A DNA stretch of 62,988 bases. Origin: an uncultured Lachnospiraceae bacterium (GTDB lineage: Bacteria; Bacillota; Clostridia; Lachnospirales; Lachnospiraceae). This document shows positions 22,514 through 33,435 of this stretch, piece after piece. The stretch is taken from contig CANQUG010000013.1 of assembly GCA_947626985.1 (NCBI GenBank), positions 1 through 62,988 of the forward strand, in the 5' to 3' direction. The position numbers were made by a program, and so were the translations under genes. Within the stretch, counting starts at the first letter, position 1. Each line of letters opens with the position of its first letter. The notes beneath the pieces are model-generated. The model was not told the origin of the DNA. It ran no database searches and saw only the letters and a list, made by a program, of their open reading frames with translations.

Positions 22514-23788
22514 ATGGAAAAAAGACCGTTTGTGACACTGGAAAAGCTGAAAGAAATCACGGCACAGTATCCGACTCCCTTTCATCTTTACGATGAGAAG
22601 GGAATCCGGGAAAACGCGAAGGCTCTGAGCGAAGCGTTTGCCTGGAACAAGGGGTTTAAGGAGTTTTATGCTGTAAAAGCGGCCCCCAATCCCTATCTGG
22701 TGAATATCCTGAAGGAGCTGGGCTGCGGCTGCGACTGCTCCTCCATGACGGAGCTGATGCTGGCTCATGCCATCGGCTGCGGGGAGGGAGATATCATGTT
22801 TTCCTCCAACGATACCCCTCTGGATGAGTTCCGGTACGCCTATGAAATCGGCGGCATCATTAATCTGGATGACTTCACCCATATCGAGGCTCTGGAAAAA
22901 TCCATCGGAAAGATCCCGAAGACGATCTGCTGCCGCTACAATCCCGGCGGAGTTTTCAAGATCAGCAACGACATTATGGACAACCCCGGGGACTCCAAGT
23001 ACGGAATGACTACGGAGCAGATTTTCGAGGCCTTCCGTGTCCTGAAGGAAAAGGGCGCGGAGGAGTTCGGCATTCACGCTTTCCTGGCCAGCAACACAGT
23101 GACCAACGAGTATTATCCGCTGCTGGCGGGCGTGCTCTTTGAGCTGGCTGTGAAGCTGCAGAAGGAGACCGGCGCCCACATTAAATTCATTAATCTTTCC
23201 GGCGGCATCGGCATCCCCTATCGTCCCGATCAGGAGCCCAATGACATTAAGGTGATTGGCGAGGGCGTGCGCAAAGTGTATGAGGAGATTCTGGTTCCCG
23301 CAGGAATGGGGGACGTGGCCCTCTACACGGAGCTGGGACGCTTCATGACGGGACCTTACGGCTGTCTGGTGACCACCGCCATTCACGAGAAGCACATTCA
23401 CAAGGAATATATCGGTGTGGACGCCTGCGCGGTGAACCTGATGCGGCCCGCCATGTACGGCGCGTACCATCATATCACGGTGATGGGCAAGGAGGATCAG
23501 CCCTGCGATCACATGTACGACGTCACAGGCTCCCTGTGCGAGAACAATGACAAATTCGCCATTGACCGGATGCTGCCCAGGGTGGATATGGGGGATCTGC
23601 TGGTGATCCATGACACCGGGGCGCACGGCTTTGCCATGGGCTACAACTATAATGGAAAGCTGAAATCCGCGGAGATCCTTCTCCATGAGGACGGAAGCTT
23701 CGATCTGATCCGCCGGGCGGAGACCCCGAAGGATTATTTTGCCACCTTTGACGGGCTGGATATTTATGAGAAACTGATTCAGAAATAA
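22514..23788 (+). CDS. lysA: Diaminopimelate decarboxylase family protein (LysA-like)
   Basis: A fold-type III PLP decarboxylase of 424 residues. The PLP Lys55 lies in YAVKAAPNP, the phosphate-binding SGGIGIPY loop and the ELGRFMTGPYG stretch are present, and the C-terminal CENNDKFAIDR and HDTGAHGFAMGYNYNG match the substrate-contacting dimer motifs. The likely reaction is meso-diaminopimelate to lysine and CO2. No clear AGGAGG is adjacent to ATG 22514 and no lysine riboswitch was recognised in the 119-base gap after pyk. A related arginine or carboxynorspermidine decarboxylase is less likely. Confidence 0.88.
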   Translation: MEKRPFVTLEKLKEITAQYPTPFHLYDEKGIRENAKALSEAFAWNKGFKEFYAVKAAPNPYLVNILKELGCGCDCSSMTELMLAHAIGCGEGDIMFSSNDTPLDEFRYAYEIGGIINLDDFTHIEALEKSIGKIPKTICCRYNPGGVFKISNDIMDNPGDSKYGMTTEQIFEAFRVLKEKGAEEFGIHAFLASNTVTNEYYPLLAGVLFELAVKLQKETGAHIKFINLSGGIGIPYRPDQEPNDIKVIGEGVRKVYEEILVPAGMGDVALYTELGRFMTGPYGCLVTTAIHEKHIHKEYIGVDACAVNLMRPAMYGAYHHITVMGKEDQPCDHMYDVTGSLCENNDKFAIDRMLPRVDMGDLLVIHDTGAHGFAMGYNYNGKLKSAEILLHEDGSFDLIRRAETPKDYFATFDGLDIYEKLIQK

Positions 23789-23790
23789 AC

Positions 23791-23838
23791 AGGAGGAGCC
23801 GCGCCGGGCTGAATACAGCCCGGAGACGCGGCTCCTCT
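23791..23838 (+). terminator. Long hairpin after lysA
   Basis: GAGGAGCCGCG and CGCGGCTCCTC enclose CCGGGCTG/CAGCCCGG, a near-continuous 19-bp stem. The T run that follows is poor, so efficiency is uncertain. Confidence 0.7.
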
Positions 23839-24035
23839 GTATTTCTGAAGTTCTGCGACCGGGTATTTTTGTACAGTGTTTTGCCCGGGAGATATCCCGT
23901 TTTTGCGTGTATGAGCGGGTTTTGCCCGGTGTTTCCCGGGAACAGGCAGACAGAATATATGAAAATGGTATAAAAATCTATCCGGTGAATTGCATAATTT
24001 ATACAAAAAATATTGGTATCTCGTATAATCATTGA

Positions 24036-24064
24036 TTGACATTTATATTGAGAACGCTTAAAAT
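24036..24064 (+). promoter_or_regulatory. Promoter of the oligopeptide transporter operon
   Basis: TTGACA (24036-24041), 17 bases, TAAAAT (24059-24064). Transcription gives a leader of about 160 bases. The 444-base gap otherwise holds the lysA hairpin, an unpaired TATAAT at 24024 and two leader hairpins. Confidence 0.82.
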
Positions 24065-24138
24065 AGGATTAAGCGGTTATGAGGTTTGTATGTTGTTTCG
24101 CATACGCCGGCGCCGCTGCGGCGCTGTTCGAGAGCGGG

Positions 24139-24180
24139 CCAGAGATCTTCTTTTCTCTTCGGAGAAAACGGGATCTCTGG
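24139..24180 (+). promoter_or_regulatory. Stable leader hairpin with UUCG tetraloop
   Basis: CCAGAGATC at 24139-24147 pairs with GATCTCTGG at 24172-24180, and TTTTCTC pairs with GAGAAAA around a TTCG tetraloop closed by C-G (24157-24162). With one mismatch and two wobbles this is a stem of about 19 pairs. There is no T run after it, so it is not a classic terminator; it may stabilise or control the binding-protein mRNA. A second GC-only palindrome (24110-24124) lies just upstream. Confidence 0.75.
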
Positions 24181-24232
24181 TCCGACGGATGCGCCGGTAC
24201 TGTTTTAAAATTATACAAAAGGAGGGTAAACA

Positions 24233-26401
24233 ATGATGAAACGAAACAAATTCCTTGCGGCGGTTATGACAGCCGCTCTGTGTCTGTCCCCGACCGCTGC
24301 TGCCTATGCGGAGGCCCCGGAGGCTCTGGATCTCGCCGCCATCGACGAGATGGATTACGACGAGGCCTGCGAGACCATCTACGACTACGTGCTGGGTGAC
24401 TTCGCATCTGTCTATGATGAGGCCAAGGCGGAGACAGGCGATCTGCGTATGGCGAAGATGGCCATTGCCGACGCCAAGCTGATGGAGACCGGCGTTTTCC
24501 TGCCGAATATCACCCAGGGAGGAAATTACGCCATGAGCCGTATTGTTCCCCGTACCAATGCCTCCATGACCATGTGGGGCGTGGACGGCGACCGCTGGCA
24601 GACTGCTCTGGTGACGAACGAACTGATCACCTCGGAGGACCGTACCCAGCTGCTGACCATGTGGAGTGAGGCGGAGACCGCTGAGGATTATTTTGCGGCG
24701 GCAAAAGAATATCTGACAGGCAAGGGATATACGTTTACGGATAATCTTGTACAGACTACCGCTTATAATGTGAATATCTGGGATACGATCGCTACTTCCT
24801 ATACATCCGATGCCTTTTTCATTTGTCCTACCTATGATAACCTGATGGAGTACGACGCCAAGGGCGTGCAGCAGCCGGGCATCGCGGAGAGCTATGAGGT
24901 TTCCGAGGACGGCACGGTCTATACCTTCCATCTTCGCCAGGGCGTGAAGTGGGTGGATCAGCAGGGCACGGAGCTCGGTGAAGTGACCGCGGACGACTGG
25001 GTGGCTTCCATGGAGCATCTGCTGGACAACAGCGACGCTCTGGGATATCTGCTCTCCAATACCGACGGCTGCGGCCTCCTGAATTTCTCAGCATATCTGG
25101 CAGGAGAGATCAATGACTATACCCAGATCGGCGTGAAGGCCATCGACGATTATACTCTGGAGTATACTCTGGAAGCTCCCTTTGCTCCCTTTACCACCAT
25201 GCTGTCCTACAGCTGCTTCGCTCCTCTGAACCGTGACTTTTATCGTTCTCAGGGCGGTACCTTCGGCTGTGAGGGCGAGACCTACACTCCCGGCGATTAT
25301 GGAAAAACTCCGGCCAACATCGCTTACTGCGGCCCGTTCCTGATCACCAACTTTACTGCTCAGAATACCACCCGCTACGAGGCGAATCCCACCTACTGGA
25401 ACGCGGAGAAGATGAACATTCAGTCCATGGAGTACAGTTATAACGACGGCAGCGATGTGCTCCGTTCCTATAATGAGGCCAAAGAGGGCGTGATCGCCGG
25501 CGCAGGCATCAATTCTTCCGCTCTGGAGCTGATGAAGACAGAAAAACCCGAGGGCCAGGATCAGACCTATTTTGATCTCTACAGCTATATCACCCCCGGC
25601 GAGGGAACTACCTACTGCGGCTGGGTGAATGTAAACCGCGGCACCTGGGCGAACTATGACAATCCCGACGTAGGTGTGTCCCCGAAGACAGAGGAAGACA
25701 TCGCCCGCACCCGGGTCGCTATCCTGGATCAGCATTTCCGTCTCGCGCTTCTGATGGCGCTCGACCGCGGGTCTTACAATGCAGTCAGCGTCGGCGAAGA
25801 TCTGAAATATGCCAGACTGCGTAATTCCTACACGCCGGGTACCTTCCAGTTCCTGACGGAGGAGACCACTGTTTCCATTAACGGCGAAGATACCACCTTC
25901 CCGGCGGGTACCGCTTTCGGCGCGATCGAGCAGGCGCAGCTTGACGCGGACGGATATCCCATTCAGGTATGGGATCCGGAAGGCGACAGCGGCGCAGGTT
26001 CCGGCGACGGTTTCGACGGCTGGTACAATCCTGACAACGCCAAAGCAGAGCTGGAGCAGGCCATCGCCGCGCTGAGCGCTCAGGGCGTGGAGGTTTCCGC
26101 TGAGAATCCCATTTATATTGACTATCCTTATGGTTCCTACAGTGAGATTGCTACCAATCAGGCGAACGTGGTGAAACAGAGTATTGAGTCTGCCCTGGAT
26201 GGCGCCGTGATTGTAAATCTGATCGCCTTTGATAAGGATACGGATGAGGAGGGCGCTGTTTACCGTTTCTCCGCAGGAAACGAAGCAAACTTTGACTTTT
26301 CCACCGGTTCCGGCTGGGGTCCGGACTACGGTGATGCGCAGTCCTATCTGGATACCATTCAGATGTATGGTTATATGTGCAAGAACCTTGGTCTGTTCTA
26401 A
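24233..26401 (+). CDS. Oligopeptide-type substrate-binding protein, apparently circularly permuted
   Basis: A 722-residue extracytoplasmic binding protein of the SBP family 5. Residues 1-26 are a Sec signal peptide ending AYA-EA; there is no lipobox cysteine, unusual for a Firmicute binding protein. The canonical N-terminal half is recognisable only from about residue 180 (YDNLMEYD, then ESYEVSEDGTVYTFHLRQG at 220). The domain runs to GWGPDYGDAQSYLDT (694-708) and stops 14 residues later, so the roughly 130-residue C-terminal segment is missing. Residues about 40-150 instead look like that missing segment (helix, then MAIADAKLMETGVFLP, then a strand-rich part and a Trp-containing end). AGGAGGG precedes ATG 24233. 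Substrate unknown; a peptide is likely. Confidence 0.85.
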   Translation: MMKRNKFLAAVMTAALCLSPTAAAYAEAPEALDLAAIDEMDYDEACETIYDYVLGDFASVYDEAKAETGDLRMAKMAIADAKLMETGVFLPNITQGGNYAMSRIVPRTNASMTMWGVDGDRWQTALVTNELITSEDRTQLLTMWSEAETAEDYFAAAKEYLTGKGYTFTDNLVQTTAYNVNIWDTIATSYTSDAFFICPTYDNLMEYDAKGVQQPGIAESYEVSEDGTVYTFHLRQGVKWVDQQGTELGEVTADDWVASMEHLLDNSDALGYLLSNTDGCGLLNFSAYLAGEINDYTQIGVKAIDDYTLEYTLEAPFAPFTTMLSYSCFAPLNRDFYRSQGGTFGCEGETYTPGDYGKTPANIAYCGPFLITNFTAQNTTRYEANPTYWNAEKMNIQSMEYSYNDGSDVLRSYNEAKEGVIAGAGINSSALELMKTEKPEGQDQTYFDLYSYITPGEGTTYCGWVNVNRGTWANYDNPDVGVSPKTEEDIARTRVAILDQHFRLALLMALDRGSYNAVSVGEDLKYARLRNSYTPGTFQFLTEETTVSINGEDTTFPAGTAFGAIEQAQLDADGYPIQVWDPEGDSGAGSGDGFDGWYNPDNAKAELEQAIAALSAQGVEVSAENPIYIDYPYGSYSEIATNQANVVKQSIESALDGAVIVNLIAFDKDTDEEGAVYRFSAGNEANFDFSTGSGWGPDYGDAQSYLDTIQMYGYMCKNLGLF

Positions 26402-26443
26402 CCCTGATCTGATCTTTTTTGAAATAAGACACAATGTACGCGA

Positions 26444-26470
26444 GGGGGCGGTGGTTTCCGCCCCCATTTT
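26444..26470 (+). terminator. Attenuating hairpin between binding protein and permease genes
   Basis: GGGGGCGG pairs with CCGCCCCC around TGGTTT, followed by ATTTTC. With a weak T run it probably lowers, rather than stops, transcription into the permease genes, as is common behind binding-protein genes. Confidence 0.75.
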
Positions 26471-26497
26471 CATGAAATAACAGAGAGGGGTCAGATC

Positions 26498-28090
26498 ATG
26501 GGAAAATACATTATCAAGCGTCTGCTGCACGGTATGGTTTCCATCATCTGCGTGGTGCTGATCGTCATGGTGCTGATCTACACCCTGCTGGACAGGGGAA
26601 AGATCTTTTCCGGCGATCCCAACTTCAACCATACCGCCAGCAACAACCGTATCATCTACCAGCAGTCCCGCTGGGAGGATTTCGGGTATCTGGATTATGT
26701 GCCCTATGCGGATTATATCAACGAACTGGCGCTGAAGGGCGAGATCGACGAGGATACCCGGGCGGCCGCGGTGCTGATCGGCCATACCCCGGAGAAGGAT
26801 TCCGAGACCGCCGCGAAGTACGTGGCGGAATTTACGGAATACTATCAGTCCAGGGGCTATAAGATCGAGCGTCTGGATGCGGACGCCAAGCGGAACGGCC
26901 AGCTTCGGGACGGCGGGCAGCCTCAGCTGTATGCGACCCGGGACATTCCGCTGCTCCAGCGGGCATTCACCTATTTTACGAAAATGTTTTTCGTGGACAA
27001 TATCCACTACGTGCCGGATTATGTGGACATGGGCAAACGCGGGCTTACCTTCACCCTTTATGATCCCGTGAAGAATCCGGCGGAGGAGACAAAAAAGGTA
27101 TTCTCCCCCGCCATTCTGGGAAACGGCACGCTGCATAAGTACCTGCTGTACTTTGACGGGAAATTCCCGTTTATTCATCAGAATCTTCTCACATTGAATC
27201 TGGGCCAGTCCTACACGGTAAACCGGGGCGTGGACGTTTTTACCACCATGACGGAATCTCAGGGCGCCTATGTGCTTTCCAGCGTAACCTACCCCACGGG
27301 CGTGACGGCGGACCGCGCGGATGATCTTCACACTGCATCCTATGTCCAGGGCTCTCTGAATGCTACCGCCTCCAACGCTCAGTGGTTTACCGATGATTAC
27401 ACCAATGTGACCACCCATAAGAAGGGGCTTTCAAGGCTCGGGTATTCCTTTGTCATCGGCATCATCTCCACCATCATGTCCTATGTCCTGGGCCTGCCCA
27501 TCGGTCTGGCCATGGCTCTGCGCAAGGATAAGCTTCTGGACAAGATCGGTACCATTTATATCATGTTTATCATCGCCGTGCCCAGCCTGGCTTACATCTT
27601 CCTGTTCAAGGCTCTGGGAGGAAAGGCCGGCCTGCCCACGCTGTTTGATATGGATTCCTCGGGCAAGCTGATGTACGTTCTTCCGGTCGTTTCTCTGGCG
27701 CTGCCTGCCATCGCCAATCTGATGAAGTGGATGCGCCGGTACATGATCGACCAGATGAATTCCGACTACGTGAAATTTGCCCGGTCGGGGGGCTTAAGCG
27801 AGGGCGAGATCTTTACCAAGCATGTGTGGAAAAACGCGCTGATTCCCATTGTTCACGGTATTCCCGGCAGTGTGCTGGGGGCGATGACCGGCGCCATTAT
27901 TACCGAGCGCGTGTACGTGGTTCCCGGCGCGGGCAACCTGCTTACCCAGGCCATCAACCGCTACGACAACGGCGTGATCGTGGGAGTGACGCTGTTTTAC
28001 GCGGTGCTGTCGGTGCTGTCCATCATACTGGGGGACGTGCTGATGGCCGCCGTGGATCCGCGCATATCCTTTACGACGAAAGACAGGTGA
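26498..28090 (+). CDS. Oligopeptide ABC transporter permease, OppB-like with large extracytoplasmic insertion
   Basis: The first membrane subunit of the transporter, 530 residues instead of the usual 305-335. The first membrane helix is at about 9-31, then roughly 290 residues are predicted outside the membrane before helix two (about 320-345). The canonical permease part follows, with the EAA-type loop SGGLSEGEIFTKHVWKNALIP that contacts the ATPases and the family end ITERVYVVPGAGNLL. The insertion is hydrophilic with Tyr/Asp-rich stretches and no repeats. Gene order directly behind the unusual binding protein suggests that the two meet at this domain. Confidence 0.9.
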   Translation: MGKYIIKRLLHGMVSIICVVLIVMVLIYTLLDRGKIFSGDPNFNHTASNNRIIYQQSRWEDFGYLDYVPYADYINELALKGEIDEDTRAAAVLIGHTPEKDSETAAKYVAEFTEYYQSRGYKIERLDADAKRNGQLRDGGQPQLYATRDIPLLQRAFTYFTKMFFVDNIHYVPDYVDMGKRGLTFTLYDPVKNPAEETKKVFSPAILGNGTLHKYLLYFDGKFPFIHQNLLTLNLGQSYTVNRGVDVFTTMTESQGAYVLSSVTYPTGVTADRADDLHTASYVQGSLNATASNAQWFTDDYTNVTTHKKGLSRLGYSFVIGIISTIMSYVLGLPIGLAMALRKDKLLDKIGTIYIMFIIAVPSLAYIFLFKALGGKAGLPTLFDMDSSGKLMYVLPVVSLALPAIANLMKWMRRYMIDQMNSDYVKFARSGGLSEGEIFTKHVWKNALIPIVHGIPGSVLGAMTGAIITERVYVVPGAGNLLTQAINRYDNGVIVGVTLFYAVLSVLSIILGDVLMAAVDPRISFTTKDR

Positions 28091-28094
28091 GACG

Positions 28095-29066
28095 ATGAAT
28101 ACAATAAATCTGGAAAAAACAGGACTTTCGGAGCAGGAGCTGTTTTCCCATGTGGACCACAGCGCTCTGGAATCAGAGAAGATCGTGGCGCCGCGCTACT
28201 CCTACTGGCGTTCGGTGTTCCGCGTATTCTTCCGAAAAAAGATCAATATTTTTGTTTTGGCGCTTCTGGGCCTGCTGATTGCTTTTGCCTATATTTATCC
28301 CTCCCTGGTGGATTACGATCCCTTTGCCAACCTGATGGATCCCAATTCCAAGCATCTGTCGCCGGCGGCGGCCATGGCGTATTTCGGGAAGGATCTTCAG
28401 TGGATCCTGGGTGCGGGATCCTCCGGCGAGTCCACCTTTGACGCCATCTGGAACGGTTCGCGCATCTCCATTTCCCTGGCGCTGGTCTGCGGAGCGATCA
28501 ATATGACCGTGGGAGTGATCGTCGGCTCCATCTGGGGCTTTTCCAAGAGAGTGGACGCGGTGATGACGGAGGTCTACAACATCATCGGCAACATTCCCCA
28601 GATCCTGCTGATCTCTGTGATGGCCATGCTGTTTGCTCCCACCTTCTGGACGATGGTGTTTGCCCTGACTGTGATCGGCTGGCTGTTTATCGCCTATTTC
28701 ATCCGGACCCAGGTGGTGATCATCCGGGACAGAGAGTACAATCTGGCCTCCAAGTGCCTGGGAACCTCCACGGTCAAGATTGCCATGAAGAACATTCTGC
28801 CCTTTATGACCAGCGTGATCGTGACGCTGCTGGCTACGGAGATTCCCTCCTATATTTCCTATGAGGTGTTCCTTTCCTATATCGGACTGGGCATGTCGGA
28901 TATGTCCCTGGGCCGTCTGATCTATCAGGCGGAGAGCGCCATGGTGACTCCCGGCTGGGAGATGGAGTTCTGGAGCCCGGTGGCCATCGCGTCCATCATC
29001 ACAGTGGTGCTTTATGTTGTGGGTCAGAATCTGGGCGACGCCTCCGACCCCCGGACGCATATGTGA
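28095..29066 (+). CDS. Oligopeptide ABC transporter permease, OppC-like
   Basis: The second membrane subunit, 323 residues and of normal length. An N-terminal cytoplasmic part with a first helix at about 53-70 is followed by five further helices; the coupling loop reads ASKCLGTSTVKIAMKNILP and the C-terminus ends LGDASDPRTHM, typical of OppC/DppC. Unlike its partners it has no large insertion. It begins 4 bases after the oppB stop, in a tightly packed operon. Confidence 0.92.
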   Translation: MNTINLEKTGLSEQELFSHVDHSALESEKIVAPRYSYWRSVFRVFFRKKINIFVLALLGLLIAFAYIYPSLVDYDPFANLMDPNSKHLSPAAAMAYFGKDLQWILGAGSSGESTFDAIWNGSRISISLALVCGAINMTVGVIVGSIWGFSKRVDAVMTEVYNIIGNIPQILLISVMAMLFAPTFWTMVFALTVIGWLFIAYFIRTQVVIIRDREYNLASKCLGTSTVKIAMKNILPFMTSVIVTLLATEIPSYISYEVFLSYIGLGMSDMSLGRLIYQAESAMVTPGWEMEFWSPVAIASIITVVLYVVGQNLGDASDPRTHM

Positions 29067-29078
29067 GGAGGCTGAGGC

Positions 29079-30827
29079 ATGGAAGAAAAAAAGGTATTAT
29101 TGTCTGTAAAAGATCTGTACGTGAAGTTCCGTGTGCGCGGCCGTATCCTCACTGCCATCCGCGGCATTTCACTGGATATTTATGAAAATGAATCCATCGC
29201 CATTGTGGGTGAGTCCGGCTCGGGCAAATCGGTGTTTACCAAAACCTTTGCCGGTATGCTGGAATCCAACGGCTTCATCGATCAGGGAGAGCTGATCTAC
29301 AACGACCCGGAGCTGGCGGACACCACCGTGAAGCTTACGCCCGGGGCCCGCTCCCTGATGCGGGGGACGCTGTCCCGTCTCAATTCCATTTCCCGGTTTG
29401 AGCTGGGAGCGTCCACCTACCGCAGGATGATGGAACTGGAGAACGAGAAGAAGCACTACGGAGATCTGAGCGAGGAGGAGCGCGCGAAAGCGGAGGAGGA
29501 AATGAAGGCGCTGAAGGACGCCCGCACCGCGCTCTTTAACGAGAGGCAGACCTACGATCCCCGTAAGGAACGGGACCGTGTGCGCGAGGCCGACCGGAAG
29601 CTCAAAGAGTACGACGCGAAGATCAAAGCGATGCAGAAGAAGGAAGAGGAGGACGCCAGACAGAGGAAATCGGCAGCCTCCCGGGACGCCGATTTCAGCG
29701 CGCGCTACAACCGGGAGATGTCTGAGCTGAAGGCGCAGTATTCCAAAGAAATCCAGGGGCAGATCAGCCCGGAGACCCGCGCCCGCAATGAGATCCTGGG
29801 GAAGGAAATCCGGCTGTCTGTGGGACGTTATCCCCTCTTTAAGCGCGTGATGCTCACCCACCGGCTGCTGAAGGCGCTGAAAAAGGCCATGCAGATGGGA
29901 GTCGATCTGAACGATGAGCAGCAGCGGAACAAAGTGTTCGATACCGTGGCCTTCCGCGTGCGCTACCTGGATGAGACGGCGGACACCCTTCACGGGACCT
30001 GCGTGCTGAATCTGGCCAGCATCAAGTACAATCAGGACTGGATGAAGATCCGAGGCCGCAGGATTGCTACCGTGTTCCAGGATCCCATGACGTCCCTGAA
30101 CCCCATTATCACCATCGGCAAACAGATCACCAGTGTGATCATCAAGCACCAGGGCTGCTCCGAGGCGGAGGCCCGCAGACGCGCGCTGGAGCTGATGCAC
30201 AAGGTGGGAATTCCCAAAGCCGAGCAGCGTTTTGACGATTATCCCTTCCAGTATTCGGGCGGTATGCGGCAGAGAATTGTAATTGCCATCGCTCTGTCGT
30301 GTCAGCCCAAGATTCTGATCTGCGACGAACCTACCACGGCTCTGGATGTGACGATTCAGGCCCAGATTCTTCAGCTGATCAAGGATCTTCAGAAGGAGTT
30401 TAACTTTACTACAGTGTTTATCACCCACGATCTGGGAGTGGTGGCGAACATCGCTGACCGCGTGGCCGTGCTGTACGGCGGTCAGGTGGTGGAGTACGGT
30501 ACGGTGGAGGAGGTCTTTTACGATCCCCGGCATCCCTATACCTGGGCGCTGCTGTCGTCTCTGCCTCAGCTGGCGCAGCGAAATACGCAGCTTTACTCCA
30601 TTACCGGCACGCCGCCTTCGCTTTACAATGCCATCGTGGGCGACGCTTTTGCGCCCCGTAATCCCTACTGTCTGAAAATAGACACGCTGGTGGAGCCGCC
30701 CATGTTCCGGGTGACCGACACTCATTACGCCAAGACCTGGCTTCTGGATCCCCGGGCGCCGAAGACGGAGAAGCCGGAGATTATCCAGAACATTCACGAG
30801 AAGCTGATGACAGCATTTAACATTTAA
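29079..30827 (+). CDS. Oligopeptide ABC transporter ATPase, OppD-like with helical insertion
   Basis: A 582-residue ATPase; ordinary OppD proteins have about 330. Walker A GESGSGKS is at 44-51, but the Q-loop [11 protein letters not shown] begins only near 332, about 220 residues further than normal. The insert (about 75-318) is highly charged and helical, with a Glu/Lys-rich stretch near 130-195 that looks like a coiled coil. Signature YSGGMRQR (392-399), Walker B ILICDEP (412-418), the H-loop [10 protein letters not shown] and the C-terminal oligopeptide motif ([14 protein letters not shown]) are intact, so the enzyme should be active. The insert lies where the ATPase core contacts the helical domain and permease. 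Confidence 0.92.
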
Positions 30828-30837
30828 GGGGGAGATG

Positions 30838-32172
30838 ATGAACGTGACTGAAACAAATCAAAAACAATCCGGCCGCGTCTCCCGCTTTCCGGAGCACGGA
30901 CCCATCGCGGAGAACGGCAAGGAAATTCTGCTGTCCATCAAGGATATTGACATTACCTTCGGCAAGGGGGACAATGCCGTCCGCGCTGTGCAGGACGCCT
31001 CCTTCGATATTTACAAGGGCGAGACGTTCTCGCTGGTAGGCGAGTCCGGATCGGGAAAGACTACCATCGGCCGCGCGGTGATCCGCGTGAACCCGCTGGC
31101 CGCGGGGGAGATTCAGTATAAGGGCGTGCGCATTTCGGGCAAGATTCCCCGGTCGCTGGACCGGGAGGTGATCCGGAACGTGCAGATGGTGTTCCAGGAT
31201 CCCGCAGCCTCGCTGAACGAGCGCGCTACCGTGGATTATATTATTTCCGAAGGTCTGTACAACTTCCACCTGTTCAAAAATGAGGCGGATCGCGTGCAGA
31301 AGGTGGAAAACATGATCAACGAGGTGGGTCTTCTGCCGGAGCACCTTACCCGTTATCCCCATGAGTTTTCCGGCGGTCAGCGCCAGCGTATCGGTCTGGC
31401 CCGGGCCATGGTCATGGAGCCGGAGCTGGTGGTTGCCGACGAGCCCATTTCCGCGCTGGATGTGTCCATCCGCGCCCAGGTGCTGAATCTGCTGAAGAAG
31501 TTTCAGCGGGAGCAGCAGGTGACCTACCTGTTCATTGCCCACGACCTGTCCATCGTCCGCTTTATCTCGGACCGGATCGGCGTGATTTATAAGGGGCGCA
31601 TCGTGGAGGTGGCAGACGCGGAGGAGCTGTTTGACTATCCGCTGCATCCCTACACCCATTCTCTGATTTCCGCGATTCCCATTCCGGATCCGAAGCTGGA
31701 GAAAAACAAGGTGCAGTATATTTATGATCCGTCCATGCATGACTACAGTGAGGACAAACCGGAGTTTGTCTGCATCGGGCATGATCATTATGTTTATGGA
31801 AACAAAAAGGAGATTGAGGAGTACAAGGCCATCCGTGAGCGCGGCGTTCCTCTTAAGCCCATTCAGATCGCGGAGCCCGGCGAAGCCCCTGCGCCGAAGA
31901 AGGGCCGTGAGGGCTCTGACGCGGCCGAGGCCGCGGAGGCGGCTGCAGAGGCGCAGTTCCTGAGCACTCCCGTGCACGACACCGGAAGCATCTGGTATAC
32001 GGTACTTTCCTTTTTCCTTCCGGTGCTGGGCATCATTGCCGCGGTTCTGTTCCGGCGGCATATGCACATTCGAAACTATAAGGCATGCAAAAAAGGCGCA
32101 GTGCTCGGCTTCATTGTGATCGGGGTGATTCTGCTGATCTTTGCCCTTCTGCTTCTGCTGGCGGTGATCTGA
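30838..32172 (+). CDS. Oligopeptide ABC transporter ATPase, OppF-like with C-terminal membrane hairpin
   Basis: The second ATPase, 444 residues against about 320 in the family. Walker [10 protein letters not shown]-loop [11 protein letters not shown], signature FSGGQRQR and Walker B VVADEP are present. After the oligopeptide ATPase end ([16 protein letters not shown]) comes a linker rich in Ala and Glu (about 350-375) and then two hydrophobic segments (about 385-405 and 420-444) separated by a basic [11 protein letters not shown] loop, resembling small bacterial membrane-hairpin domains. The protein would therefore be anchored in the membrane by itself. Two adjacent ATG codons (30835, 30838) are possible; the second is better spaced from AGGGGGAG. 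Confidence 0.88.
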
Positions 32173-33435
32173 TTGGGACGCACTGCCAGGGACCGGCGGG
32201 AAAATCTCCCCAGGCCGGTACAGAAGATTGAACTGAATGCCGGATACACAAAAGCGCGTCTGGCGGCGGCGCTGATTCTCCTTGTGGTGGGCGTCGGTCT
32301 GATCATGTACTCCCTGAACGGAGGCTTCACGGTACGGGAAGGCTGGACAGAGATCGAAGCCGCGTCGGGGGAGGCGGACTGCTCGGGGGATTTCACCTTT
32401 CTTTATCCGCTGGGGACCACCGCTTCCCCCGCGGCGGAGCGCAAAGCCCTTTCTCTGCTTTATACGGAAGCCTGCAGGGACGCCTACCGTATATTTACCG
32501 ACGACGCGGAGTTTGCCGGTATCCGCAATGTGCGGTTCCTGAATGCCCATCCTAACGAGGAGATTCAGGTGGAGCCGGCGCTTTATAAAGCTTTTGAACA
32601 GATTGCGGAAAGCGGGGACAGGTCGATTTATCTTGCGCCTCTCTATGAAACGTATGATAATGTGTTCCACTGCGACGATCCCTCCCGGACGGCTGATTTT
32701 GATCCATATCAGAATGAAGAGCTGCGGGCCTGGTTTGCCGAGGTCTGTACCTATGCCAATGATCCGTCTCAGGCGGAACTGGAGCTTCTGGGAGATGGCC
32801 GCGTTCGGCTGAAGGTGTCGCAGGAGTATCTTGCTTTCGCGCAGGCGGAGGAAATCGGCAGTTTTGTTGATTTCTACTGGATGAAAAATGCCTTTATTGC
32901 GGATTATCTGGCGGAAAGGCTGACCGCGGAGGACTATTCGATGGGAATTCTGTCCAGCTTCGACGGCTTTTCCAGGAATCTGGATACGGCCGGGGATACG
33001 GATTATTCCCTGAACATTTATGACAGAGAGGATACGCTGATCCGTCCCGCCGCCGTGATGCACTACAGCGGCGTCCGCAACATCGTCAGTCTTCGGAATT
33101 ATCCGCTGAATGAAGAGGCAGAAGAATATTACTGCGTCCTTTCTGAGGATGAAATCCGGACGCCTTATCTGGATACGGAGGACGGCCTGTGCAGAAGCGC
33201 CCTGAACGACCTTACCGCCTATTCTGAACAGGCGGGCTGCGGGGAGATTCTGCTGAAGCTGATTCCCGTCTATATTGCGGAGGAGTTCCGCCCGGAGCTC
33301 CTCACCTCCCTGTCAGAGAACGGCATCCAGAGCATATACTGCCGGGATGCGGTGATCCGCCACACGGAAGAATCCGTGGATCTGAGAGACCTGTATGACG
33401 GAAAGGACGTCAGCTACAGGGAGCAGATGGATTAA
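32173..33435 (+). CDS. Unrecognised membrane-anchored protein at the end of the transporter operon
   Basis: I do not recognise this 420-residue protein. A basic N-terminus is followed by one membrane segment (about 29-48, LAAALILLVVGVGLIMYSL), so about 370 residues lie outside the cytoplasm. The outer part is acidic, rich in Tyr, Asp and Glu, with four scattered cysteines and no catalytic motif that I can name. The start is a TTG directly abutting the oppF TGA, with no clear ribosome site, so translation would depend on re-initiation; homologous positions would be needed to confirm the start. Being the last gene before the operon terminator it most likely works with the transporter, perhaps as an accessory receptor. 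Confidence 0.75.
   Translation: MGRTARDRRENLPRPVQKIELNAGYTKARLAAALILLVVGVGLIMYSLNGGFTVREGWTEIEAASGEADCSGDFTFLYPLGTTASPAAERKALSLLYTEACRDAYRIFTDDAEFAGIRNVRFLNAHPNEEIQVEPALYKAFEQIAESGDRSIYLAPLYETYDNVFHCDDPSRTADFDPYQNEELRAWFAEVCTYANDPSQAELELLGDGRVRLKVSQEYLAFAQAEEIGSFVDFYWMKNAFIADYLAERLTAEDYSMGILSSFDGFSRNLDTAGDTDYSLNIYDREDTLIRPAAVMHYSGVRNIVSLRNYPLNEEAEEYYCVLSEDEIRTPYLDTEDGLCRSALNDLTAYSEQAGCGEILLKLIPVYIAEEFRPELLTSLSENGIQSIYCRDAVIRHTEESVDLRDLYDGKDVSYREQMD

What the first reader, a model, noticed from the sequence alone, without database searches (positions are those of the whole stretch)
24233..26401. Apparent circular permutation of an oligopeptide-binding protein
A canonical family 5 binding protein begins with the N-terminal lobe (tydGLmeyd, then ESYEVSEDGTVYTFHLRQG) and ends about 130 residues after the GWGPDYGDxxxYLDT motif with a helix and an IPL-like strand that completes the fold. 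Here the lobe motif appears only near residue 180, the chain stops 14 residues after GWGPDYGD, and residues about 40-150, just behind the signal peptide, read like the missing end: DEAKAETGDLRMAKMAIADA is like the penultimate helix, KLMETGVFLPNI like the conserved final beta strand, and the SRIVPRT...WGVDGDRWQT stretch like the last strand and turn. If so, the new ends lie in the region between YLDT and the final helix. This would be a natural permutation, with the polypeptide exported in a different order and folded to the same shape.
Basis: partly seen in the sequence, partly recalled or inferred. Interest (0 to 1): 0.82.

Follow-up and report, generated by a model that had tools for sequence, protein, structure and literature searches.

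The report
Circularly permuted peptide-binding transporter protein
A gut bacterium makes a peptide-catching transport protein whose tail end sits at the front of the chain, and related gut bacteria appear to have made the same rearrangement more than once, which offers a natural test of how and why proteins change their order.

Summary
The 722-residue protein at 24233-26401 is a family 5 oligopeptide-binding protein of Ami/Ali type whose last ~110 residues sit behind the signal peptide. Pneumococcal relatives of solved structure align in two swapped pieces. A profile of the N-terminal segment alone hits, besides one chance row, only the C-termini of AliC, AmiA, AliB and AliD. A conventional full-length profile matches a doubled copy in one run across the junction; 0 of 30 conventional controls do so. 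The arrangement is old: 95 loci and 240 of 240 listed homologues share it, with one origin on the tree and a distinctive operon. The same genome holds a second, OppA/DppE-type protein opened at the corresponding loop. The two types are separate origins (AU p 1e-104). Within the second type, permuted and conventional orthologues alternate in a shared operon; the tree needs 5 switches, at least 4 forced by supported branches. A permuted sugar-binding protein is known (Treponema MglB-2). A permuted family 5 protein, or recurrence, did not appear in seven paper searches. The structure is predicted, not solved; what the permutation does is inferred.

The parts
24233..24310 (+). signal peptide, residues 1-26 (ends AAAYA; read by eye as signal peptidase I type, no clear lipobox)
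   Evidence: sequence; boundary by eye, no prediction tool was run
24356..24673 (+). relocated C-terminal segment, residues ~42-147 (helices 42-65 and 69-85, strands 89-94 and 99-102, helix 134-146); matches AliC 518-616, AmiA 522-632
24575..24586 (+). W115-G116-V117-D118: aligns with the part of AliD that holds peptide-contacting I603; W, G and D are identical in 240 of 240 homologues
   Evidence: the residue mapping is mine
24674..24781 (+). new joint between the old C-terminus and the old N-terminus, residues ~148-183, with a predicted helix 150-163
24782..26398 (+). old N-terminal part (both lobes up to the cut), residues 184-722; SBP_bac_5 214-709; matches AliC 26-506
26315..26326 (+). 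W695-G-P-D698, aligned with AliD W498...D501 that hold the peptide's amino end; W, P, D identical in 240 of 240
26399..26401 (+). stop codon at the new C-terminus; no remnant of the moved segment downstream
26498..28090 (+). AmiC-like permease, 530 aa; BPD_transp_1 only at 332-524, so ~330 extra residues in front
28095..29066 (+). AmiD-like permease, 323 aa, with OppC_N
29079..30827 (+). AmiE-like ATPase, 582 aa, about 220 residues longer than conventional relatives
30835..32172 (+). AmiF-like ATPase, 445 aa
32173..33435 (+). sixth gene of the operon (mechanical ORF, 420 aa, unknown family); conserved behind the permuted type

Best explanation
It is a naturally circularly permuted oligopeptide-binding protein (SBP family 5, Ami/Ali type) of an Ami-like ABC importer in a gut Clostridium. 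SHOWN by sequence: the old C-terminal segment (residues ~42-147) lies behind the signal peptide, the old N-terminus follows at ~184, and the chain ends in the loop that in conventional proteins leads to the moved segment. SHOWN on the tree, with the model's limits: this type arose once from an Ali/Ami-like ancestor, and an OppA/DppE-type lineage made the corresponding change separately. INFERRED: the chain folds into the usual two-lobed flytrap. The old ends lie close together because the terminal helix of Ali proteins (alpha 19) packs on lobe 1, so they could be joined. The new ends lie in domain III of lobe 2, near AliD residue 526. Peptides are held by residues from both ends of the chain (near W115-D118 and W695-D698) and passed to the AmiC/AmiD pore. 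The main physical effect would be to move the tether (lipid anchor or signal-peptide linker) from lobe 1 to lobe 2 without rebuilding the pocket. How the DNA rearranged is not shown; tandem duplication followed by loss of both outer parts is the usual route.
Against: No coordinates, so the place of the segment in the model was not superposed on AmiA. Sequential aligners cover only 157-722 of the model, so structure gives no positive match for the segment itself. pLDDT is under 50 at 113-115, inside the presumed pocket. The single-sequence hit to AliB is not significant (0.83). No binding or transport data. No duplication intermediate was found. The window protein has no clear lipobox, so a lipid tether cannot explain the permutation in this very protein.
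Confidence: 0.95

Rival explanations
1. Fusion, not permutation: an unrelated or independently folding N-terminal domain was added to a binding protein that merely lost its C-terminal part.
For: Pfam gives the segment no credible family; SBP_bac_5 is otherwise nearly complete.
Against: The segment is homologous to just the part that is missing, scores in one run with the rest when doubled, and does not fold confidently alone.
Confidence: 0.03
2. Artefact: frameshift, misassembly or wrong gene call.
For: Many of the loci are from metagenome-assembled genomes.
Against: The same order and end recur in 95 loci (at least two pairs are one contig under two names) and 240 proteins from several sources, including records titled as isolates or strains (Lachnospiraceae bacterium A4, Acutalibacter sp. 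1XD8-33, Pseudoflavonifractor sp. MSJ-30). The second type occurs in a one-contig genome (L202 in G473).
Confidence: 0.01
3. One ancient permutation shared by both types and later reversed in many conventional lineages, instead of separate origins.
For: Both types are cut in the corresponding loop, and inside the second type the cut is nearly identical in all permuted members seen.
Against: The two types lie in different, supported clades of conventional proteins, and holding all permuted rows together is rejected (AU p 1.2e-104).
Confidence: 0.04
4. The permutation is neutral drift: any order that folds is tolerated and nothing is gained by moving the tether.
For: Type 2 orthologues of both orders sit in the same operon layout; tethered and apparently untethered permuted forms both exist.
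Against: The same loop was opened in both types, and type 1 is almost always coupled to a longer AmiC and AmiE and a sixth gene; this may be common descent and not function.
Confidence: 0.45

Closest known systems
Pneumococcal Ami-system binding proteins AmiA, AliB, AliC, AliD (PDB 8a42, 8qlj, 8qlh, 8qlc)
   Same: Homologous over nearly the whole length, including the terminal helix region and the WGPDY-like motif
   Different: Order of the chain: their C-terminal ~110-130 residues are N-terminal here; new ends in domain III; ATPase and permease partners longer
B. subtilis OppA and DppE (PDB 8are, 8ay0)
   Same: Family 5 binding proteins; closest solved relatives of the second permuted protein, P0241
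   Different: P0241 carries their residues ~452-520 in front of ~22-450
Treponema pallidum MglB-2 (Tp0684), proposed 'Cluster Bc' (PMC4990184, passages read)
   Same: A natural circular permutation of an ABC-importer binding protein, also seen by its authors in Gram-positive bacteria; they too suggest a link with tethering
   Different: Sugar-binding cluster B fold; the N-terminal strands moved to the C-terminus; the moved part is only 13% identical to its counterpart in E. coli MglB. Here the C-terminal segment moved to the N-terminus of a family 5 (cluster C) protein with clear sequence homology, and orthologues of both orders coexist

Membership tests
SBP family 5 (Pfam PF00496) | Profile match above the curated cut-off | tested here: met
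   152.1 bits, cut-off 32.4
SBP family 5 (Pfam PF00496) | Conventional order: N-lobe first, C-terminal segment after the SBP_bac_5 core | tested here: not met
   Segment in front of the core. I therefore file it as a circularly permuted variant, not as an ordinary member
SBP family 5 (Pfam PF00496) | Encoded with two permeases and two ATPases | tested here: met
   26498-32172
SBP family 5 (Pfam PF00496) | Binds peptides between two lobes | not testable with these tools
   Only motif conservation and a predicted fold
Ami/Ali type | Closest solved relatives are AmiA/Ali proteins and it groups with them on a tree | tested here: met
   sister rows L121 and L178, fork support SH-aLRT 97-98
Ami/Ali type | Terminal helix alpha 19 behind the last strands | tested here: met
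   Homology reaches AliC 616-631 and AmiA 632; predicted helices 134-146 and 150-163
Ami/Ali type | Permease AmiC with large extracellular domains | tested here: inconclusive
   530 aa against 313-498 in conventional loci, but no fold or topology test
Ami/Ali type | Lipoprotein signal (lipobox) | tested here: not met
   Not seen by eye in P0001. Two different patterns found one in 204 and 213 of 240 listed homologues
Cluster Bc (TpMglB-2-like permuted proteins) | Cluster B sugar-binding fold with the N-terminal strands at the C-terminus | tested here: not met
   Family 5 profile and fold matches; the opposite end moved

The most novel reading that the evidence does not exclude
In gut Clostridia the loop between the DPxxxL motif and the last helices of peptide-binding proteins is a recurrent opening point. 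Circular permutation there has happened independently in two subfamilies and, inside one orthologous opp operon, has switched about five times, probably in both directions, always to nearly the same residue. Topology would then be an evolutionarily switchable trait, made by a specific and repeatable DNA rearrangement and kept because it moves the tether from lobe 1 to lobe 2.
Probability: 0.4. Interest if true: 0.88.

Novelty: new variant of a known kind. Interest (0 to 1): 0.75.

Why it matters
Natural circular permutations are usually seen as one ancient event, with too little sequence likeness left to follow. Here permuted and conventional orthologues at roughly 56-63% identity in the body stand in the same operon layout, so the route of the rearrangement, its reversibility and its effect on export, tethering and transport can be tested. 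The family is widespread in gut metagenomes, and Pfam annotates it as an ordinary SBP_bac_5 protein, so the change is invisible to routine annotation.

Tried and rejected
Pfam and NCBIfam: SBP_bac_5 ends before the moved part and the NCBIfam matches are all far under their cut-offs, so neither could decide. Structure: the segment alone (20-row alignment) gave pLDDT 63, too poor for a fold search, so none was run on it. Foldseek against the PDB found only binding proteins among the 50 rows shown, but its alignments are sequential and cannot show a permutation; one hit, the domain-swapped AliC dimer, superposes badly (rmsd ~29) for that reason. Rfam found nothing at 23700-26600. Remnants of the moved segment downstream of the stop: the weak tblastn hits (E 0.004 and above, 13 stretches) lie within shuffled controls, made from one stretch. 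Duplication intermediates with the segment on both sides: 0 in 95 permuted and 26 conventional type 1 loci and 240 proteins, and 0 in 121 proteins and 59 examined type 2 loci, which partly repeat each other. Most homologues of the three protein searches were not listed (120 shown of 2147, 1600 and 4300), so rare intermediates may have been missed. Tandem neighbours as a source: no second binding-protein gene stood beside a type 2 gene in the 21 stretches examined. Longer tethers in permuted proteins: lipobox-to-fold distances were longer (type 2 median 43 against 25; type 1 49 against 36), but the permuted forms with a signal-peptidase-I-like start were shorter (18 and 24) and the rows are related, so I draw no conclusion. 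Recombination: the short C-segment tree puts L200 and L204 in the same groups as the body tree, which speaks against import of the segment from another lineage, but it has only 70 columns. Phylum search: of 13 genomes with a match besides G000 and G026, 12 were checked and conventional; G770 and four of five G819 matches were not examined.

Full report
WHAT IS THERE. The ORF 24233-26401 (+) encodes 722 aa (P0001). Pfam SBP_bac_5 lies at 214-709, profile 3-360 of 368, 152.1 bits. Behind it in the same direction stand two permeases, two ATPases and a sixth gene. The window is one whole contig (C13) of an unnamed 4.08 Mb genome, G000; its nearest named relatives are uncultured gut Lachnospiraceae and Clostridia, so the host is probably a gut Clostridium (inference).

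THE PERMUTATION. Phmmer against the solved structures gives two swapped stretches: query 184-721 to AliC 26-506 and query 52-147 to AliC 518-616; query 186-710 to AmiA 30-498 and 52-159 to AmiA 522-632; a third protein, AliB, shows the same with a weak second stretch (i-value 0.83). A profile of residues ~33-177 from 20 permuted homologues found five PDB sequences at E up to 1: AliC 5.6e-10, AmiA 4.4e-9, AliB 1.3e-7, AliD 2.8e-7, each at the chain's C-terminus (501-631 of 626-638), and a cytolysin at 0.94, which I take as chance.

DOUBLED AND ROTATED. With a profile of 12 conventional relatives (621 positions) the native order gives 247.1 bits for profile 44-498 and 32.6 bits for 516-614. The doubled sequence gives one match, 281.3 bits, 44-614, across the junction, and rotations starting at residues 149-181 score best. 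Controls: 0 of 30 conventional proteins span the junction when doubled (18 type 2, 12 type 1). In the own genome only L001 (this protein, +33.3 bits) and L010 (+100.9) do; of the other ten, none spans it, although one gained 9.8 bits. Caveat: the conventional controls also built the profiles, and the type 1 ones were picked because they match the segment, though not because of where.

RELATIVES. In genome contigs 106 relatives were confirmed and 80 kept; all 80 are permuted. In the class sample 17 of 291 genomes had the segment: 5 permuted, 12 conventional. In the family sample 15 of 250: 13 with a permuted gene and 3 with a conventional one, G403 having both. In the phylum sample 15 of 398: G000 and G026 permuted; 12 of the other 13 were checked and all 12 conventional. 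In all, 95 permuted and 26 conventional loci; at least two permuted pairs are one contig under two names, judged by equal contig lengths (L085 and L150, L048 and L159). Of 2147 and 1600 protein hits, 240 were listed and all 240 are permuted.

ORIGIN OF TYPE 1. On trees of the body alone the permuted rows are one side of a branch: 43 permuted against 15 conventional and 3 outgroup rows, SH-aLRT 96, and 35 against 26, SH-aLRT 97. The nearest conventional rows are L121, which has a 498-aa AmiC, and L178, an Ali-like protein; both have long branches, so their place is less sure.

OPERON. Permuted type 1 loci carry a long AmiC (83 of 83 complete ones at least 480 aa; conventional 1 of 24) and a long AmiE (76 of 78 at least 560 aa; conventional 3 of 23). 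The sixth gene is present in 65 of 67 permuted loci with 7.3 kb held downstream and in 0 of 2 conventional ones, which is too few to compare (the two contig duplicates are counted). It has no Pfam match and no credible PDB match.

A SECOND PERMUTED PROTEIN. G000 holds 12 SBP_bac_5 genes. L010 (C3:91109-93028, minus; P0241, 640 aa) has its profile match ending 6 aa before the stop. Phmmer: 193-643 to DppE 22-444 and 121-188 to DppE 452-519 (i-value 2.1e-9); 188-645 to B. subtilis OppA 15-450 and 122-185 to 457-520 (3.4e-5). Permuted members end at SGNNDxQFG[KR] or close variants, whereas conventional ones run on through a short linker into the segment; L294, with eight more residues, is an exception. 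Of 4300 hits 120 were listed; with the query 121 of 121 are permuted. The 30 loci are 12 permuted and 18 conventional. The 30 loci gave 29 classified, 21 permuted and 8 conventional, 14 of them seen before. Specificity of the diagnosis: in 36 examined SBP_bac_5 genes of 11 genomes (12 own, 24 of 33 others) only three are permuted: P0001, P0241 and L232.

RECURRENCE. In a 76-row tree the two permuted types lie in different clades, each with its own conventional relatives; the architecture needs 5 changes, and holding all permuted rows together is rejected, AU p 1.2e-104 (quick tree, several long branches). Within type 2, 44 rows need 4 changes (AU p 7.4e-4 against one clade); 59 rows need 5, with 4 forced by supported branches, 0 of 200 bootstrap trees with one change, and AU p 2.6e-48. 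The groups were named before these trees. Gains only, or gains plus reversals, fit equally well by count. The operon order permease, permease, ATPase, ATPase, binding protein holds in 18 of 21 stretches, 10 permuted and 8 conventional; L255 has the binding-protein gene first, and L253 and L262 are cut by their edges. The C-segment tree agrees with the body tree on the nested cases L200 and L204. Permutation therefore seems to happen in place, in orthologues.

KNOWN WORK. Searches of the held PMC library gave no circularly permuted family 5 protein in the listings I saw (8: no papers; the others 8-25 rows each, most read as listings only). The nearest precedent is TpMglB-2 (PMC4990184, passages), a permuted cluster B glucose-binding lipoprotein whose authors also suggest tethering as a reason. 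Permutation by duplication as the usual route is recalled; PMC3320104 on it was seen only as a listing with the start of its abstract.

VERDICT. The permutation is as good as shown by sequence. Its age, its distinct operon and its recurrence are supported. That the pocket is unchanged and that the tether moves to lobe 2 are inferred. Why and how it recurs is open.

Noticed in passing
G000 contig C3:91109-93028 (-), locus L010/L191; not in the window: Second circularly permuted binding protein (P0241), OppA/DppE type, with a long acidic repeat linker (EAPAEDAGE) between signal peptide and moved segment.
   Followed up: yes
32173-33435 (+): Sixth gene of the operon, ~420 aa, hydrophobic stretch near the N-terminus, no Pfam match and no credible PDB match, found in 65 of 67 permuted type 1 loci with enough sequence.
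   Followed up: partly
29079-30827 (+): AmiE-like ATPase about 220 residues longer than conventional relatives; by eye the extra part is charged and helical and lies between the two ABC_tran stretches.
   Followed up: partly
L001, L009-L019 (genome G000): None of the 12 SBP_bac_5 proteins of this genome shows a clear lipobox by eye, although matches to Lgt (two) and LspA (one) are present. Permuted type 2 proteins often lack it too (70 of 131 classed by a rough pattern; conventional 0 of 18).
   Followed up: partly
22514-23788 (+); L119, L120, L122, L124: A PLP decarboxylase-like gene (Orn_Arg_deC_N) stands just upstream of the binding protein in the window, and a homologue just upstream in four conventional type 1 loci.
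   Followed up: no
G377:C9:164725-168496; G243:C2:639271-641367: Tandem arrays of three and at least two separate conventional-looking binding-protein genes, a possible substrate for duplication-type rearrangement.
   Followed up: no
L294 (G515): Permuted type 2 protein with eight residues beyond the usual end (TATAEAAE), the only one of 23 type 2 permuted loci seen to differ there.
   Followed up: no
G000:C51:4054-5091 (L015); G309:C35:231455-232360: SBP_bac_5 genes with a stop inside the match (L015) or a match split in two (G309); possibly broken genes or sequence errors.
   Followed up: no
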